Below are positions 35,946 to 44,225 of a stretch of 64,000 bases of DNA, piece after piece. Under the pieces are notes generated by a model, which was not told the DNA's origin, made no database searches, and saw only the letters and a list, made by a program, of their open reading frames with translations. Both the position numbers and the translations under genes were made by a program. Source of the stretch: a virus; IMG/VR virus record IMGVR_UViG_3300036770_001423, positions 1 through 64,000 of that record; one strand, written 5' to 3'. Each line of letters begins with the position of its first letter. Within the stretch, counting starts at the first letter, position 1.

Positions 35946-37097
35946 CTAATCTGGCGTAATATACTTTAACAATATGTCTAATACAAGACTGAAGTCTTTA
36001 CGGTGGAATGTCTCTGTATAACCAGAACCCATTTCTTGTTTTGTAATTATACCTCTTTCGATACCAGAAGATATAATCTCACTCTCAAGTTTGCGTATAA
36101 CGTACCCATCAGGGTTCTCAAGATAGTATATTACAGATAAGGGGTATTTACATTTCTGTTGTATCTGCTTTAATCTTTTATCTAAATTATTCGTTATACC
36201 AAATTTCAGCACATCGTCAGTAACTTTCAATAAATAAAAAGTACCTCCCATAGTGCTTCTATAACCAACCCTTTGATTCGAGCATCTAGGGCAACCAGCG
36301 GCATAAAGATGACTGTTAGGTGCTTGAGAAAACACACCGTGATCTCTGCATATGATGTCTATCTTAGTATGTTGATTTTTGTAATCAACTAATGAATAGT
36401 CATATTTATCACCATGCACTTTCTTAGCTAATGATATGTATTCTTCTGTTGTGAACTTAAACATCTCTGCTTTAGCTAGTGAAGCACACTTAGTACAACC
36501 AATTGTAGTTAAATGGTGATCAGCCCTTTGAGTGACTACGCCGTGTAACTTACATTCGTATGTAATATACTTACTCTTACCAACATACTCAGTAATAGAG
36601 TAGTCATATTTATCCCCATGAACTTGTTTTGCTTTTTCTACATATTGTTCTTTACTAAATACTCTACTTTTAGAGTTATTGACAGTAGCACAAGATTTGC
36701 AACCAACTTTGCCTGCTGTATGTCCTGACAGTTCTTGTCTAAATACTCCGTGGTCAGGGCAAATAATATCTACAATATCTTTAACTTTGACATTATCGGG
36801 TATAAGACTATAATCATATTTACCGTTATGGGCGCATGTTGCTTTATCAATAAAGTACTGCCTAGGTTTTCTGGTAGCTTCTGCGATCCTTTCTTTGGCG
36901 CAGAGCTTACACCCATGTCTAGCGGATGTGTGACTGTTTGGGGTCACTTCAAATACAAAGTCGTGCTTAATACAACGAACTTTAACTTTATTACAGGCTT
37001 TAGTGTAAACAGACAAAGAATAATCATACTTATCTCCGTGAACACTTCTAGCTTTAATGATAAACGTTTCTAAATCTTCTATTTCGTGCTTTGCCAA
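35946..37097 (-). CDS. Homing endonuclease: four zinc-binding repeats plus GIY-YIG-like domain, 383 aa
   Basis: Four ~60-residue repeats each carry HGDKYDYS (or a variant), a C..HG or C..H motif and a closing GC..C pair. This is the DUF723-type DNA-binding repeat. Residues ~290-383 form a compact GIY-YIG-type nuclease (GGTFYLLKVTDDVLKFGITN, then RLKQIQQKCKYP and the catalytic E in ESEII). The start is a TTG at 37097, preceded by AAGG. Free-standing just upstream of terL, it may mobilise a terL intron in trans. Confidence 0.78.
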   Translation of the reverse strand: MAKHEIEDLETFIIKARSVHGDKYDYSLSVYTKACNKVKVRCIKHDFVFEVTPNSHTSARHGCKLCAKERIAEATRKPRQYFIDKATCAHNGKYDYSLIPDNVKVKDIVDIICPDHGVFRQELSGHTAGKVGCKSCATVNNSKSRVFSKEQYVEKAKQVHGDKYDYSITEYVGKSKYITYECKLHGVVTQRADHHLTTIGCTKCASLAKAEMFKFTTEEYISLAKKVHGDKYDYSLVDYKNQHTKIDIICRDHGVFSQAPNSHLYAAGCPRCSNQRVGYRSTMGGTFYLLKVTDDVLKFGITNNLDKRLKQIQQKCKYPLSVIYYLENPDGYVIRKLESEIISSGIERGIITKQEMGSGYTETFHRKDFSLVLDILLKYITPD

Positions 37098-39389: not shown

Positions 39390-39662
39390 TTATTCTACAA
39401 ACACTCGCCAATTACCACCAATATCACGAAGCTCGTAAGAATACCGGTAGTTGTTACACACAATAGCAAACCCATCTTCTGACCTCAGAGGTCTTGCTGA
39501 GCTAACACTATCACAACGATAACCAAATGCTTTCACTACATCAGCTACTGCGCTGATTAATTCTGAATTCATCTGTTCACTAATGATTGCATCACTCTCA
39601 ATTGGTGTTCCTGCATAAGCCAGTGATGATGCGAATAATGTTGCTAATACTAATTTCTTCAT
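39390..39662 (-). CDS. Exported small protein, 90 aa
   Basis: MKKLVLATLFASSLAYA is a clear signal peptide with an AYA cleavage site. The mature ~73 residues hold two cysteines (CDS, VCNN) that may form a disulfide. A periplasmic protein, perhaps acting on the host envelope or exclusion. Function unknown. Confidence 0.65.
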   Translation of the reverse strand: MKKLVLATLFASSLAYAGTPIESDAIISEQMNSELISAVADVVKAFGYRCDSVSSARPLRSEDGFAIVCNNYRYSYELRDIGGNWRVFVE

Positions 39663-39673
39663 GTTTATATCTC

Positions 39674-39964
39674 CTATAACTTCAAGTACTTTTTCATTAA
39701 AAGTTTTAATTTACCTAAGTCATCCGATACTAGATCGGACTCAGTGATGCAGTCAAAGTAATCATCTATGTGTGTTTCTACCATAACCAAGAAAGCTCTG
39801 GTGTTGTTTCTATGAATTATTTCAGTAACAGGAATGACCTGATATGGGCCAACATAACGTCCAGAAATTAGTTTACATACATTGATTGGGATATTAACTT
39901 CAAAAGAGGTAATATCCCAATTGTCAGGGCCAAACGGCATAGCTAACGTCTTACTCTTATACAT
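39674..39964 (-). CDS. Hypothetical protein, 96 aa
   Basis: Not recognised. Beta-rich N-terminal half (SFEVNIPINVCKLISGRYVG) and an acidic helical end. It is first in its transcript, behind a structured leader and a strong promoter. AGGAGG precedes the ATG. Confidence 0.6.
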   Translation of the reverse strand: MYKSKTLAMPFGPDNWDITSFEVNIPINVCKLISGRYVGPYQVIPVTEIIHRNNTRAFLVMVETHIDDYFDCITESDLVSDDLGKLKLLMKKYLKL

Positions 39965-39989
39965 TTAAACCTCCTACAAGCAATTCTAA

Positions 39990-40041
39990 GCCACTTTAGA
40001 CATCATTGTGTCTCAATGTATTCCCTAACATCTAAAATGGC
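39990..40041 (-). promoter_or_regulatory. Hairpin in the 5' leader of the 39.7-kb gene
   Basis: An 11-bp stem with one G.U pair (39990-40000 with 40031-40041) encloses an inner CATTG / CAATG hairpin (40004-40018). It lies in the ~90-nt leader between promoter and ATG. It could be a regulatory or stabilising RNA element. Confidence 0.45.
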
Positions 40042-40063
40042 TCTCCGTGTGTCCTATGAGCTA

Positions 40064-40092
40064 ATACTAAGCTATGTTTGTGTTGTTGTCAA
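40064..40092 (-). promoter_or_regulatory. Sigma-70-type promoter
   Basis: Minus strand TTGACA (40092-40087), 17-bp spacer, TAGTAT (40069-40064). Confidence 0.65.
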
Positions 40093-40109
40093 GAATTATT
40101 TTTAAATAA

Positions 40110-41429
40110 TTATCCTTTAGCAACTTTGCTAGACACTTTACAATTGTTTCCACCAATAACAGAGTCATAAGCGTAGAACATAATTTTACGTAGCATGTCC
40201 TCGTTCTTACGCTGAACAATGAAACCGTCATGTAGAGGAATCAGTATTTCATCTTCCAATAAAACTCGCTCTATCACAATATCACACATCTGGGATTCGA
40301 TGTTCATTAACTCTAATCCTGTGTTTGGTCCTGTGGTATTCATCAAATAACCGTTGTGTTCAATTAATTTATCAATAATTGTATGCACAACTCTACCTTC
40401 TGGCCACTTACCTTCAGCCTTAGCTTTCTTGACTTCTGACTTCAGAGGTTCTTCAGTTAACGCACTGCTTAGAGCTGCCATAGCAGATGTAGGATTGTCT
40501 GTGTTAATTATCATCAATAACCCTTTCTTACTAATTGCCCTGAGTAATGATTTGTCCATACCTTCAAACTCAATACCATAAGGGTCATAGTTGTCTGGGA
40601 ATGTTACACCAGCTAAATCTGCCAAGATAGATGGATGCAAATGTTTATAATCAAGTTCAACACAAGGTTCTTTGTTTATGGTTATCTCTAAACGTGTAGC
40701 AGCGCTCTGAGCTTGCTGTGAATTAGTACCCACCAAATAGTTCCTCCCGCCATACTGGTAACTTGAGTTATTATAGATCTTCTTAACACTGAAATCAAGC
40801 TTATTGTCATGCAAACAGATCTCATTTTCTATCATAGATAGATTTAGTTTAGTAAGAATCCTAATAATGTCTTTTTGCTTTTCTGTAAGCTTCTTAGAAA
40901 TAAGATTGCCATCCTCGTCTCTAATATCCATAACACTCAGTGGTAGAGTGTCAGATTTCTCAGCTAAAGGCGTAAACAGGTCTATAAGAGCAGGGGACAA
41001 CTTCACTGCTGATGTAAATTTGTTACCAACCTTTACCTGCCTAATCTTACCTTTAGACTTTTTAAAAGATTCTAGGTCAAACTCCCAAAACACTCCGCCA
41101 TAAGACATAAAGCAATCTTTCTTAAAGACTAAGAAATCGCATAACAACATAGTGTATTTGTGACTTACCTTTCTGTTTACCTTAGTGCCGTTGTAGATCA
41201 GCGGTAAACTATATACCACCTTCTTTCTTGGGATATAAACCATATCCTTTCCTTTAGATACAACGAACACTGTGTTCTTAACGAAACAACATACTGCCTT
41301 GTAGCTTAGGTCTTTAGTCTGGTTTGTTATTACTACTTCTTTACTCTCTAGCCACTCTATGAATTCTTCATGCAATGAGTTACTAATACTATTTAAATAT
41401 TTAGGTATAACATAGTCCAATAGATACAA
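40110..41429 (-). CDS. Family-A-polymerase-like palm protein, 439 aa
   Basis: Motifs in the order of family A polymerases: ELDYKHLHPSI (motif A-like, D260 and H265), RAISKKGLLMIIN (R297 to K302, O-helix-like), NIESQMCDIV (Q380, D383) and LIPLHDGFIV (motif C-like H400-D401). The first ~220 residues are unlike the known 3'-5' exonuclease. The O-helix tyrosine is absent or displaced. It may be a specialised polymerase or an inactive relative. GGAGG precedes the ATG. It lies directly downstream of the XRE regulator on the same strand. Function is inferred from motifs alone. Confidence 0.55.
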   Translation of the reverse strand: MYLLDYVIPKYLNSISNSLHEEFIEWLESKEVVITNQTKDLSYKAVCCFVKNTVFVVSKGKDMVYIPRKKVVYSLPLIYNGTKVNRKVSHKYTMLLCDFLVFKKDCFMSYGGVFWEFDLESFKKSKGKIRQVKVGNKFTSAVKLSPALIDLFTPLAEKSDTLPLSVMDIRDEDGNLISKKLTEKQKDIIRILTKLNLSMIENEICLHDNKLDFSVKKIYNNSSYQYGGRNYLVGTNSQQAQSAATRLEITINKEPCVELDYKHLHPSILADLAGVTFPDNYDPYGIEFEGMDKSLLRAISKKGLLMIINTDNPTSAMAALSSALTEEPLKSEVKKAKAEGKWPEGRVVHTIIDKLIEHNGYLMNTTGPNTGLELMNIESQMCDIVIERVLLEDEILIPLHDGFIVQRKNEDMLRKIMFYAYDSVIGGNNCKVSSKVAKG

Positions 41430-41490
41430 TTAAAGCCTCCTAAAGTTTACCTAGGACGGTAAGGGAACCAAGTTGCTAGTAAAATAACAA

Positions 41491-41512
41491 AGAAACCCTT
41501 ATGTACCAAGGG
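41491..41512 (-). terminator. Terminator-like hairpin after the XRE gene
   Basis: CCCTT / AAGGG stem with a seven-base loop, followed on the minus strand by TTTCTTTGTT. Weak; some reading through into the polymerase-like gene is likely. Confidence 0.45.
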
Positions 41513-41544
41513 CTACAGCCTAGTTTTATAGATAGTTTTCTACA

Positions 41545-41763
41545 TCAGACCTTGTGTAAAAACATCTCATATTCTAAGTCAAATACAGCAGCAATCTCAA
41601 GTAATTTATCGAGAGATACGTTCTCACCTTTAAGCCAGAAACTAACCATCTGCCTTGATACCCCGAGTTTCTTAGCCAGATCGGATTGTGATGTTCCAGA
41701 GAATTTTAATTCATCGTTAATATCATCAATCAATTTTAATTTAAGTTCTTGTAAATTCTTCAT
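41545..41763 (-). CDS. XRE/Cro-type transcriptional regulator, 72 aa
   Basis: A single helix-turn-helix domain: TSQSDLAKKLGVSRQMVSFW followed by LDKLLEIAAVFDLE. Cro-sized, so probably a dimeric repressor. The start is the ATG of MKNLQEL at 41763, with AGGAG six bases upstream. It is transcribed divergently from the tailspike cassette; two palindromes lie between them. It could control the cassette, itself, or both. Confidence 0.82.
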   Translation of the reverse strand: MKNLQELKLKLIDDINDELKFSGTSQSDLAKKLGVSRQMVSFWLKGENVSLDKLLEIAAVFDLEYEMFLHKV

Positions 41764-41783
41764 ACTAACTCCTTTACTCCTAT

Positions 41784-41811
41784 AGTATAACACGTATTAG
41801 AATATTGTCAA
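41784..41811 (-). promoter_or_regulatory. Sigma-70-type promoter for the XRE gene
   Basis: Minus strand TTGACA (41811-41806), 16-bp spacer, TATACT (41789-41784). Confidence 0.65.
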
Positions 41812-41846
41812 TAAATATTATTGTCAACTAATTACTTGACAAGACC

Positions 41847-41872
41847 AAACGCAAATATTTAAAATTGCGTTT
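41847..41872. promoter_or_regulatory. Palindrome, possible operator
   Basis: AAACGCAA (41847-41854) and TTGCGTTT (41865-41872), perfect 8-bp arms with a ten-base AT-only spacer, between the two divergent promoters. Confidence 0.45.
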
Positions 41873-41927
41873 ACCTCAACAGCTACCCACATTACCACAC
41901 CAAATATCCAATGTCAACTTATTTCGA

Positions 41928-41956
41928 TTGACAAAACACACTTATTGTGTTACTCT
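41928..41956 (+). promoter_or_regulatory. Promoter of the tailspike cassette with embedded palindrome
   Basis: TTGACA (41928-41933), 17-bp spacer, TACTCT (41951-41956). The spacer holds the palindrome AACACA-CTTAT-TGTGTT (41935-41951), which is ideally placed for repressor binding. Confidence 0.6.
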
Positions 41957-41996
41957 TTTGGATGTTAAATGTCTTAACAATTAAGAGAATATCACA

Positions 41997-42170
41997 ATGA
42001 GAGATATTGTGCAAGTAAATGCGACAATTTACAGCCCGTCTGCTGGGATAATTAGTGTTGGAAGTAAGATAGAGCCAATAAACCCTGTAGAAACAGACGG
42101 GTTTTTAGATGAATATAGCTATATGTTTGATGAAAGTATTTTATCAGACGATGTTGAATTATGGAGTTAA
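41997..42170 (+). CDS. Small protein preceding the second tailspike, 57 aa
   Basis: MRDIVQVNATIYSPSAGIIS at the start; acidic C-terminus ending DDVELWS. It has an AAGAGAAT site, and three bases separate its stop from the tailspike ATG, whose own GGAG lies in its last codons. The two are therefore coupled. It is not similar to anything recognised; it may be a chaperone, adapter or leader. Confidence 0.6.
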   Translation: MRDIVQVNATIYSPSAGIISVGSKIEPINPVETDGFLDEYSYMFDESILSDDVELWS

Positions 42171-42173
42171 TGG

Positions 42174-44225
42174 ATGTCAATTAATAAATTAGTTGCTGAT
42201 TACAAAGGTAGTCCTAGTAACAGTAAAGGTAGTAATATCAGGGATGCTGTGAACCAGCTGATTGACGCGCATGTATCGCACCTGAAGTCGCTTCCTGTCG
42301 CTGCTAAGGCGCAGACGGATACGGTTTATAACGTGATTGGGTTCTATGCTGGCAGCACCAAAGGTGGTAGCCGGTTTATTTACGACCAAAACATGTCAAA
42401 AGCCATGCACAATGGCGGCACTGTAATAGCGCCTGAAGCACTGGCAGCGTGGAGTGGAACACATGCTGACTTGACCACGCTTCTGGTGTGGTATGGTACA
42501 GGTTCTGGCTGTTATGTCTCAATAGAACAAAATATAAATGCCGCCATGTTTGGTGCGGTCTGTGACGGGACGTTAGACGATGTGCAATCAATTGAAGCTG
42601 CCTTTAACTTTGCTAACACACTTATAAATGGAAGTGTGACACTTGGTGCATATCACAGAATAAGCCGTTCTATTAAATTCAGAAAGTATGTAACTGTAAT
42701 CGGAAATGGCAGCTGGATTCTGAATTACGGGACAGAAGATGCTTGTATTCCGCATCCTGACGACGGAATAGTTCTGGCAAGAGTAAGCGGATTCAATATC
42801 ACTTATCAGAACTACGGATCTCCTTTGAACCCAAATAGCCCACCATACACAGTTGATAAAACAAAAAAGCTGGGTAATCAAATAGTATGGTCTCATATGT
42901 CAACTTTCATAGCTGACGGTCTAAAACATTCATCGTCAGGAAGGTACTTCCAAGACTTCGAGCGGATCAATGTTTACTGGCATCGATACGGATTTCATAT
43001 GCTTGGCTGGACAATTCAAGGCAGAAACTGCCGTGCTCTATACAACGCGAGAGGTTTCTTTGGGTCTAACGCTGCCATTAATTCCGTCAGATACCCTGTT
43101 CACGCACTACAGCTTAATGATTGTCACGCGATAGCGAACACCGAAAACGGGGTAGATATTCGGTTCGCCGACGGCGTCAATCTGAAGGGCTGTCACAGCG
43201 AAAAAAACTATTCCCGCAATATCAGAGCTGAAGGTGTCCGTGGGTTAACACTAGATCAGTTTTATCAAGAGTATTCGGACGGCAGTATCTTACTGTTTAA
43301 CAGTCAGGGTGTTGATATTAATGGATACAGCTCTGGGAACAGACAAGTTTACAAAGGTTATGCTAAATCAGCTCAGGCATACTACGAAGAAACGATTGTT
43401 AGCGGCACCTCGGTAAATGTAACGGCATATAACTCCAGTACCAAAATCGGTATTGATAACTTCGACAGTGTACCCACAGCTGAAATTGCTGTAATCAGAA
43501 ATGATGGATATTTACCACCAGCTAACTGGTCAAGGTCAAGCTCAACTATCACGGTACCGTCTGCGGTCGCCGGTGATGTTATATCGGTTATTGCATATGC
43601 CTACAGAAACCCTGCGGTTGACCTTGCTGCGATCCAAGACAAATACGAGCTTGGTGCGAACTATCCGCTTGAGGTTCAGCACGCCCAAAACGTCCAGTTT
43701 GGCGGCTTTGTCACCAGCTATCGCACAGGTCCTGCGCTGACCAACGATTTTGATTTAGCGAACCTCGCCGCCAGTAAAGATATCTATTACAACGCATTTC
43801 TGAAAGACACTACAGTATATAATGTCCCAAGCATGTATTTTCCGTGGGGTACAGGTTTTGCTCTAAAGCAGAATTTCAACAGAGGCTTGGTGATAAAGAA
43901 CGATACAGACCCAAATGTTGAAGTCAGCTTTACAGGAACGCAGCACTATCCACAAAGTGGTCAAGTAGGTACGATATCTCTGCCCAACGCAAATGCTACA
44001 CTTTTCATGGTGATTTCTGCAAATGGCTGTGCAATGTTCACATTTGACGGTAACGGGTCAATTTATCCTGCCGCTGTTTCAGGACAAAACTACACAATAC
44101 AGCAAACGAATGCGGCTACAGCTAACAAGTTAAACTTGTATAGTGCCGGGGCCAACCTGTTAGGATTTGATAACAGGCTCGGGTATGCTACTCAGTTCAC
44201 ACTTTTACGACTATCTGATAATTAA
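42174..44225 (+). CDS. Second tailspike with shared N-terminal adapter, 683 aa
   Basis: Residues ~1-140 (INKLVADYKGSPS, DAHVSHLKSLP, AKAQTDTVYNV, MSKAMHNGG) closely match the attachment domain of the minus-strand tailspike 12558-14426. From NAAMFGAVCDGTLDDVQSIE on it is a right-handed beta-helix (SLRDCHAIANTENGVDIRFA-like turns), with a C-terminal beta region (residues ~400-683) that differs completely. It lies outside the virion block, on the opposite strand, with its own promoter and terminator. Confidence 0.85.
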   Translation: MSINKLVADYKGSPSNSKGSNIRDAVNQLIDAHVSHLKSLPVAAKAQTDTVYNVIGFYAGSTKGGSRFIYDQNMSKAMHNGGTVIAPEALAAWSGTHADLTTLLVWYGTGSGCYVSIEQNINAAMFGAVCDGTLDDVQSIEAAFNFANTLINGSVTLGAYHRISRSIKFRKYVTVIGNGSWILNYGTEDACIPHPDDGIVLARVSGFNITYQNYGSPLNPNSPPYTVDKTKKLGNQIVWSHMSTFIADGLKHSSSGRYFQDFERINVYWHRYGFHMLGWTIQGRNCRALYNARGFFGSNAAINSVRYPVHALQLNDCHAIANTENGVDIRFADGVNLKGCHSEKNYSRNIRAEGVRGLTLDQFYQEYSDGSILLFNSQGVDINGYSSGNRQVYKGYAKSAQAYYEETIVSGTSVNVTAYNSSTKIGIDNFDSVPTAEIAVIRNDGYLPPANWSRSSSTITVPSAVAGDVISVIAYAYRNPAVDLAAIQDKYELGANYPLEVQHAQNVQFGGFVTSYRTGPALTNDFDLANLAASKDIYYNAFLKDTTVYNVPSMYFPWGTGFALKQNFNRGLVIKNDTDPNVEVSFTGTQHYPQSGQVGTISLPNANATLFMVISANGCAMFTFDGNGSIYPAAVSGQNYTIQQTNAATANKLNLYSAGANLLGFDNRLGYATQFTLLRLSDN

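What the first reader, a model, noticed from the sequence alone, without database searches (positions are those of the whole stretch)
40110..41429. Unassigned family-A-polymerase-like protein
ELDYKHLHPSI, RAISKKGLLMIIN, NIESQMCDIV and LIPLHDGFIV occur in the order and spacing of family A motifs A, O-helix and C. The N-terminus does not look like a 3'-5' exonuclease and the usual O-helix tyrosine is not in place. It sits with an XRE regulator, not with replication genes. It could be a specialised replicase, translesion enzyme, terminal transferase or a defence factor.
Basis: inference. Interest (0 to 1): 0.7.

Follow-up and report, generated by a model that had tools for sequence, protein, structure and literature searches.

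The report
Phage accessory family-A polymerase (divPolA2)
This phage carries, besides its ordinary replication polymerase, a small second polymerase of a family described in 2024 whose job is unknown; its relatives also sit in bacterial genomes, often beside DNA-integrating enzymes, and it probably helps to start or patch DNA copying.

Summary
The ORF (40110-41429) is on the minus strand: 439 aa, TTG start behind AGGAGG. It hits phrog_4756 ("unknown function", E 2.8e-75) and is a new, about 30%-identical member of divPolA2, a divergent phage family-A polymerase already in print (Yutin et al. 2024, PMC11348598). AlphaFold2 (pLDDT 92.9) gives a family-A palm/fingers core, about residues 163-439, alike to DNA and RNA polymerases (Z 15.7 and 15.0). 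Both catalytic Asp (D260, D401) and the R297xxxK301 helix never vary in 56 relatives. The phage has a regular DNA polymerase and primase-helicase elsewhere.

Added here: (1) firm homology to a polymerase family in proteobacterial genomes whose context fits the TV-Pol group (Iyer 2008), though membership stays open; (2) an N-terminal domain that looks winged-helix-like, without statistical support; (3) a small HTH gene just upstream in 10 of 27 phage loci; (4) in 82 ICP1-lineage records one locus holds either of two 28%-identical versions, 39 and 43 records, none with both.

Best reading: an exonuclease-less accessory DNA polymerase, perhaps DNA-tethered and self-priming. RNA polymerase is less likely but not excluded.

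The parts
40110..41429 (-). divPolA2 gene, 439 aa, TTG start
   Evidence: phrog_4756 E 2.8e-75; tblastn to barbavirus protein E 3e-56
40914..41429 (-). codons 1-172: N-terminal domain, winged-helix-like (weak), shared with bacterial relatives
   Evidence: model pLDDT 86.1; best Foldseek E 0.55, best VIA Z 5.7; alignment
40626..40658 (-). motif A, residues 258-268, with catalytic D260 (40650-40652)
   Evidence: D260 in 56 of 56; sequence
40503..40541 (-). O-helix, residues 297-309: R297xxxK301, N309 where classical enzymes have Tyr
   Evidence: R and K in 56 of 56, N in 53 of 56
40215..40244 (-). motif C, residues 396-405, with catalytic D401 (40227-40229)
   Evidence: D401 in 56 of 56; sequence
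41436..41441 (-). AGGAGG ribosome-binding site
   Evidence: read by eye
41494..41514 (-). terminator-like hairpin between the HTH gene and the polymerase gene
   Evidence: one of 3 terminator-like sites in 39600-42250 (shuffles: mean 1.0, sd 1.0); single copy in the window at up to 3 mismatches
41545..41763 (-). XRE/Cro-type HTH gene, 72 aa from the ATG (ORF open from GTG 41793)
   Evidence: HTH_3 E 4.7e-11
41784..41811 (-). sigma-70-like promoter of the HTH gene, 11 of 12 with TG
   Evidence: the region holds 16 such sites against 11.9 (sd 2.9) in shuffles, so only suggestive
41821..41842 (.). inverted repeat TTGTCAA-N8-TTGACAA, possible operator

Best explanation
The gene encodes a divPolA2-type polymerase: a family-A palm-fingers core with both metal-binding Asp, no proofreading domain, and an N-terminal, probably winged-helix, domain where a classical enzyme has its exonuclease. 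It most likely copies DNA with dNTPs as an accessory enzyme beside the phage's regular replicase, brought to certain sites or structures by its N-terminal domain; it may begin strands itself, as predicted for TV-Pols and shown for CcPol-MP. A small XRE repressor and a terminator-like hairpin would hold it off until needed. Shown here: family, predicted fold, intact active site, a separate regular polymerase, the HTH neighbour. Inferred: DNA rather than RNA product, DNA binding by the N-terminus, priming, the switch, the biological role.
For: Homology to divPolA2. Family-A fold. Invariant catalytic residues in 56 of 56. At the fifth residue after the motif-A Asp all 56 have a side chain (H 43, E 5, N 4, W 3, Q 1) where T7 DNA polymerase has Glu and T7 RNA polymerase Gly, which favours dNTP use. 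Regular polymerase, primase-helicase and exonuclease subunit elsewhere. Homology to bacterial relatives (E 1.1e-31) with recombinase-like neighbours in 45 of 80 loci, the context from which priming was predicted for TV-Pols; CcPol-MP primes with dNTPs (passages). HTH gene upstream.
Against: The fold alone does not tell DNA from RNA polymerases: Z 15.7, 15.0 and 14.4 are tied or nearly so. The winged-helix likeness is below significance. No SSB-like partner or helicase next door, which CcPol-MP has. Weak link to the one TV-Pol of a phage that I could compare (no match; E 0.0022 at probability 13). 17 of 27 loci show no HTH gene that I recognised. The Asn in place of the O-helix Tyr has no tested meaning.
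Confidence: 0.55

Rival explanations
1. It is a small single-subunit RNA polymerase that transcribes some phage genes.
For: Fold match to mitochondrial and T7 RNA polymerases (Z 15.0 and 14.4). Motif C reads HDS, as in T7 RNA polymerase, in many relatives (Ser after the Asp in 48 of 56; the window protein itself has Gly). Yutin et al. name this option.
Against: No Gly at the fifth position after the motif-A Asp in 56 of 56, and no Tyr at K+8 in 56 of 56 (3 of 15 in the other set have Tyr). No repeated promoter-like motif of 20 nt or more in the window; the recurring intergenic k-mers look sigma-70-like. A dispersed palindrome is not explained. A review says ICP1, which has the family, is not predicted to encode an RNA polymerase (passage), but it may not have considered this gene.
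Confidence: 0.15
2. It is a repair or translesion DNA polymerase that only extends primers.
For: No exonuclease domain; regular replicase elsewhere; Yutin et al. name repair as an option.
Against: Nothing here singles out repair; no repair gene is a constant neighbour in the loci tabulated.
Confidence: 0.2
3. It serves conflict with hosts, satellites or rival phages: a defence or counter-defence factor made from a polymerase.
For: Two exchangeable versions in ICP1-lineage phages; XRE-type neighbour in 10 of 27 loci; a methylase gene in 12 of 80 bacterial loci.
Against: No PADLOC match for the window protein or for four of five relatives; the fifth has one weak partial match to JetD, E 0.00075. 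Exchange of ORFs is common in ICP1 (passages).
Confidence: 0.1

Closest known systems
divPolA2 (Yutin et al. 2024, PMC11348598; sections 12, 13, 14 read)
   Same: Homologous over nearly the whole length; active-looking palm, no exonuclease; present beside a regular polymerase; variable neighbourhood
   Different: About 30% identity to the barbavirus protein; here a link to bacterial relatives, HTH neighbours and the ICP1 alternation are added, which I did not see in the sections read
TV-Pol (Iyer et al. 2008, PMC2579912; parts 1 and 2 of 3 read)
   Same: Two catalytic Asp, hairpin Arg, fingers Asp and RxxxK; N-terminal extra domain in a subset; bacterial relatives stand near recombinases
   Different: No helicase or recombinase beside the window gene; thumb not established; comparison with a named member weak
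PolA-SSB primase CcPol-MP (PMC10061031 parts 1-2 of 5 read; PMC7581432 abstract and passages)
   Same: Exonuclease-poor A-family polymerase on mobile DNA; possible priming
   Different: No helicase neighbour and no SSB-like partner identified
T7-like single-subunit RNA polymerase
   Same: Palm-fingers fold and RxxxK helix
   Different: No Gly at D+5, Asn instead of Tyr at K+8, half the length

Membership tests
divPolA2 | homology to the barbavirus protein | tested here: met
   tblastn E 3e-56, 30.3% identity, 95% of the query; BFVD first hit E 1.2e-36
divPolA2 | palm with motifs A, B, C | tested here: met
divPolA2 | no 3'-5' exonuclease; N-terminal domain of its own | tested here: met
   no Pfam match above cut-off, no significant PDB fold match to residues 1-172; absence judged by these tools only
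divPolA2 | present in addition to a regular polymerase, away from it | tested here: met
   phrog_1252 DNA polymerase E 1.1e-144 at record 81264-82892
TV-Pol | two Asp, hairpin Arg, conserved fingers Asp and RxxxK | tested here: met
   D260, D401, R246, R297, K301 in 56 of 56; R229 in 55; D282 in 54
TV-Pol | thumb of two antiparallel helices | tested here: inconclusive
   one long helix 183-201 before the palm; not compared by coordinates
TV-Pol | D5-like helicase, recombinase or transposase nearby (contextual) | tested here: not met
   none among the neighbours scanned at 32-45 kb; in bacterial relatives a recombinase-like gene in 45 of 80
TV-Pol | homology to a named TV-Pol | tested here: inconclusive
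   Ma-LMM01: HMM search of the record found nothing; MAP_030, which I take to be its TV-Pol, E 0.0022 at probability 13, control 0.81
PolA-SSB primase (CcPol-MP) | OB-fold partner encoded next to it | not tested
   no neighbour was folded; the paper says sequence searches miss such partners
PolA-SSB primase (CcPol-MP) | helicase gene beside it | tested here: not met
   the ORFs between 38.1 and 41.8 kb are 69-120 aa, too short for a helicase
classical DNA polymerase I | O-helix Tyr and exonuclease domain | tested here: not met
   N309; no exonuclease match
T7-like RNA polymerase | Gly at D+5 of motif A and Tyr at K+8 of the O-helix | tested here: not met
   H265 and N309
known or candidate defence protein (PADLOC 2023) | profile match | tested here: not met
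   0 families for the window protein
any of these | polymerase or primase activity | not testable with these tools
   needs purified protein

The most novel reading that the evidence does not exclude
divPolA2 and its bacterial relatives are one family of self-contained starters of DNA synthesis: a winged-helix domain fused to an A-family primase-polymerase, needing no separate primase, held under an XRE switch in many phages, and exchanged whole between phages as a replaceable replication start that hosts or satellites cannot easily follow.
Probability: 0.22. Interest if true: 0.72.

Novelty: new member of a known kind. Interest (0 to 1): 0.45.

Why it matters
Nearly all known primases belong to two families, and A-family enzymes that can prime are known from CcPol-MP. 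If divPolA2 primes or binds origins, a group of mostly aquatic phages has a second, portable way to start DNA synthesis, and the alternation in ICP1-lineage phages would suggest selection for change. The bacterial relatives tie an unnamed phage family to a large set of bacterial loci that carry recombinases.

Tried and rejected
Scanning IMG/VR with the window protein alone found no relative. The 15-row alignment was too divergent to scan with, so closer sets were used. PDB sequence searches gave nothing significant: window protein best E 0.32; profiles best E 0.19 and 0.071, both to a predicted transcriptional regulator, at the N-terminal domain. Single-sequence hhalign to T7 RNA and DNA polymerase was not significant and did not align the motifs, so the family-A claim rests on the fold and on motif spacing.

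The HTH protein does not lead to the other divPolA2 phages: its 15 tblastn records are Lactobacillus, Pseudomonas, Streptococcus, enterobacterial and unnamed phages, so the HTH genes beside divPolA2 are not one close family.

The hairpin upstream looked like a gene-specific RNA: nearly the same 20-mer stands in the leader of Aeromonas phage vB_AdhM_DL (L009), with variants in L013 and L025. But the pattern also occurs in five IMG/VR stretches in which a profile search found no divPolA2, and Rfam has no match. I keep it as terminator-like only. Leaders of 23 loci were folded without statistics and show no obvious common structure.

RNA polymerase idea: no repeat of 20 nt or more that looks like a promoter; intergenic k-mers are AT-rich or sigma-70-like, apart from a dispersed palindrome. 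Papers: searches for ICP1 gene names found no account of this gene (listing; passages or no hit). Folds missing from the VIA lists are not counted as absent.

Full report
What is there. The window is the first 64,000 bases of a 94,296-bp virus record. The reported ORF runs from 41429 down to 40110 on the minus strand: 439 aa, TTG start, AGGAGG six bases ahead. The quoted motifs are at the stated spacing. Pfam has one match far below its cut-off (Rep_4, E 0.13), NCBIfam none; PHROGs has phrog_4756, unknown function, E 2.8e-75 over residues 1-432. tblastn finds relatives in 264 of 50,697 phage records at E 1e-5, all under 60% identity: 128 Vibrio, 115 Rheinheimera, 14 Aeromonas, 4 Pseudoalteromonas and one each of three other genera.

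It is a known family. Yutin et al. 2024 (PMC11348598; sections 12, 13 and 14 read) describe divPolA2: first seen in 110 barbavirus genomes that also encode a regular PolB, sometimes two or three paralogs per genome, an active-looking palm, no thumb like that of other polymerases, no exonuclease, an N-terminal domain of unknown kind; they suggest repair or RNA synthesis. The window protein matches the barbavirus protein over 95% of its length (30.3% identity, E 3e-56). In the fold search of viral models eleven entries, led by a barbavirus protein, have E below 1e-17, then E rises to 1.8e-7. In the library of papers, divPolA2 occurs in 2 of the 20 papers listed (of 110 that hold any of three terms), that paper and its preprint; phrog_4756 occurs in none.

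Fold. With an alignment of the window protein, 14 phage and 41 bacterial sequences, AlphaFold2 gave pLDDT 92.9, pTM 0.86. Foldseek against PDB: 135 matches at E 0.001 or less; the 50 listed are family-A DNA polymerases. VIA-align: Z 15.7 to apicoplast DNA polymerase (242 residues, 3.8 A), 15.0 to yeast mitochondrial RNA polymerase (246, 3.3 A), 14.4 to T7 RNA polymerase (252, 3.4 A). Structure alone does not choose between DNA and RNA.

Active site. In the 56 sequences G228, R246, D260, Y284, R297, K301 and D401 never vary; R229 is R in 55, D282 is D in 54, N309 is N in 53. The fifth residue after the motif-A Asp is H in 43, E in 5, N in 4, W in 3, Q in 1; in the partly overlapping set of 15 it is H 9, E 5, W 1. 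T7 DNA polymerase has Glu and T7 RNA polymerase Gly at that spacing. That Glu is the sugar-selecting residue is recalled knowledge. This favours dNTP use; the equivalence rests on motif spacing, not on superposed coordinates. In the set of 15, three have Tyr at the N309 position.

N-terminal domain. Residues 1-172 folded alone gave pLDDT 86.1. Foldseek found nothing below E 0.55. The best VIA Z is 5.7, below the level that means anything by itself; the rows are largely ribosomal small-subunit chains (which I take from chain names to be eS10 and eS19, winged-helix proteins by recall), with LmrR, MarR-type regulators, SarA and RepA of pPS10, and also Hsp70 rows and one T7 RNA polymerase row. Profile searches point, without significance, to a predicted transcriptional regulator and to AdcR at the same residues. 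I read it as winged-helix-like, unproven.

Bacterial relatives. Two of 72,556 plasmid records have relatives at E 0.01. A scan of genome contigs with these two gave 180 relatives, of which the best 80 were kept, by title mostly Alphaproteobacteria. Phage and plasmid profiles match at probability 99.9, E 1.1e-31, over 302 columns from residue 96 on. In a tree of 24 phage and 20 chosen bacterial rows the two groups are parted by one branch (100/99). Clustering of neighbours (single linkage, E 1e-5) puts a protein of one tyrosine-recombinase-like cluster in 41 of 80 loci and of a serine-recombinase cluster in 19; 45 have either; many loci are cut by contig ends. Pfam on members: PF00589 above its cut-off in L098 and L090, below it in L073 and L048, absent in L070, which like L073 and L048 has DUF6538; PF00239 in L045; the other members were not scanned. 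A DNA-methylase cluster is in 12 of 80, 8 of them without a recombinase (Pfam on one member). This resembles the context that Iyer et al. 2008 give for TV-Pols with an N-terminal domain (parts 1-2 of 3 read). The only named phage member I could reach is in Ma-LMM01: a profile search of that record found nothing, and MAP_030, which I take to be the TV-Pol from its size and transposase neighbours, gave E 0.0022 at probability 13 with the motifs aligned, a control protein 0.81. So: related to TV-Pols in context and motifs, membership open.

Place in the phage. The record has a primase-helicase (phrog_239, E 1e-139), a DNA polymerase (phrog_1252, E 1.1e-144) and an exonuclease subunit (phrog_403) at 79-91 kb, and a DNA ligase at 53.7 kb. 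divPolA2 is about 38 kb from the primase-helicase, among small ORFs between terminase and portal genes and a tail-fibre-like gene. It is unlikely to be the replicase.

HTH neighbour. In the window an XRE-type gene ends 115 bp upstream, with a sigma-70-like promoter, an inverted repeat and a terminator-like hairpin before the polymerase gene; promoter-like sites in this stretch are not clearly above chance (16 against 11.9, sd 2.9). Of 27 phage loci (at least three, L021, L029 and L037, are near-copies of others), I picked by eye 10 with a small HTH-like gene next upstream or one small ORF away. Pfam gives HTH matches at E 0.01 or less in all ten, five above the curated cut-off (window; nine); an eleventh, L011, gave none. 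The upstream ORFs of the other 16 were not scanned. Six downstream proteins gave no HTH. The HTH families differ, and this control is small.

ICP1 alternation. The stretch gp95 to gp103 was compared by megablast with all 50,697 phage records. The version with a HigA-like gene and divPolA2 (from L002) covers at least 80% in 39 records; the version with another HTH gene and divPolA2 (from L003; gp100 in NC_015157) in 43. Each search matched 82 records, both lists of full matches are shown whole, and by my reading they share no accession (NC_015157 duplicates HQ641347). The shared 736-base flank is 99.7-100% identical in the partial rows shown; some records lack part of it. The two proteins are 28% identical over 240 residues and fall on separate branches. 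So each of these records keeps one of two very different versions at one locus. Exchange of ORFs is common in ICP1 (passages of PMC9040626), so this shows exchange, not function.

Mechanism. Most likely an accessory DNA polymerase without proofreading, placed on DNA by its N-terminal domain, perhaps self-priming, and held down by the XRE protein. Priming is borrowed from CcPol-MP, which needs an SSB-like partner (abstract and passages of PMC7581432; PMC10061031 parts 1-2 of 5) that was not looked for by folding here. My odds: family and fold 0.95; DNA rather than RNA 0.75; N-terminal DNA binding 0.65; priming 0.4.

Noticed in passing
8478, 45852, 62728 (minus) in the window; L018:6577 (minus): Four exact copies of AACGCTCTAG, three of them in intergenic stretches of the window, each at the start of an imperfect palindrome; further near copies, e.g. 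L018:6134. Use unknown.
   Followed up: partly
L018:17264-19407 (record 81264-83407): The regular DNA polymerase ORF matches its PHROG family only to position 509 of 663 and is followed, with overlap, by an HNH endonuclease ORF: the polymerase gene may be split by it.
   Followed up: no
35946-37097 (minus): Protein with repeated treble-clef-like stretches and a MUG113/T5orf172 end, matching phage endonuclease families (phrog_681 E 3.2e-72); likely a mobile endonuclease near the terminase gene.
   Followed up: no
L010:5292-6407: A GIY-YIG nuclease gene stands directly after divPolA2 in Vibrio phage 1.187.O, 14 bases downstream; it may help the gene to spread.
   Followed up: no
41836-41865 (plus): A second sigma-70-like site (11 of 12) faces the tail-fibre-like gene at 42174 and overlaps the inverted repeat at 41821-41842; the HTH protein might control both directions.
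   Followed up: no
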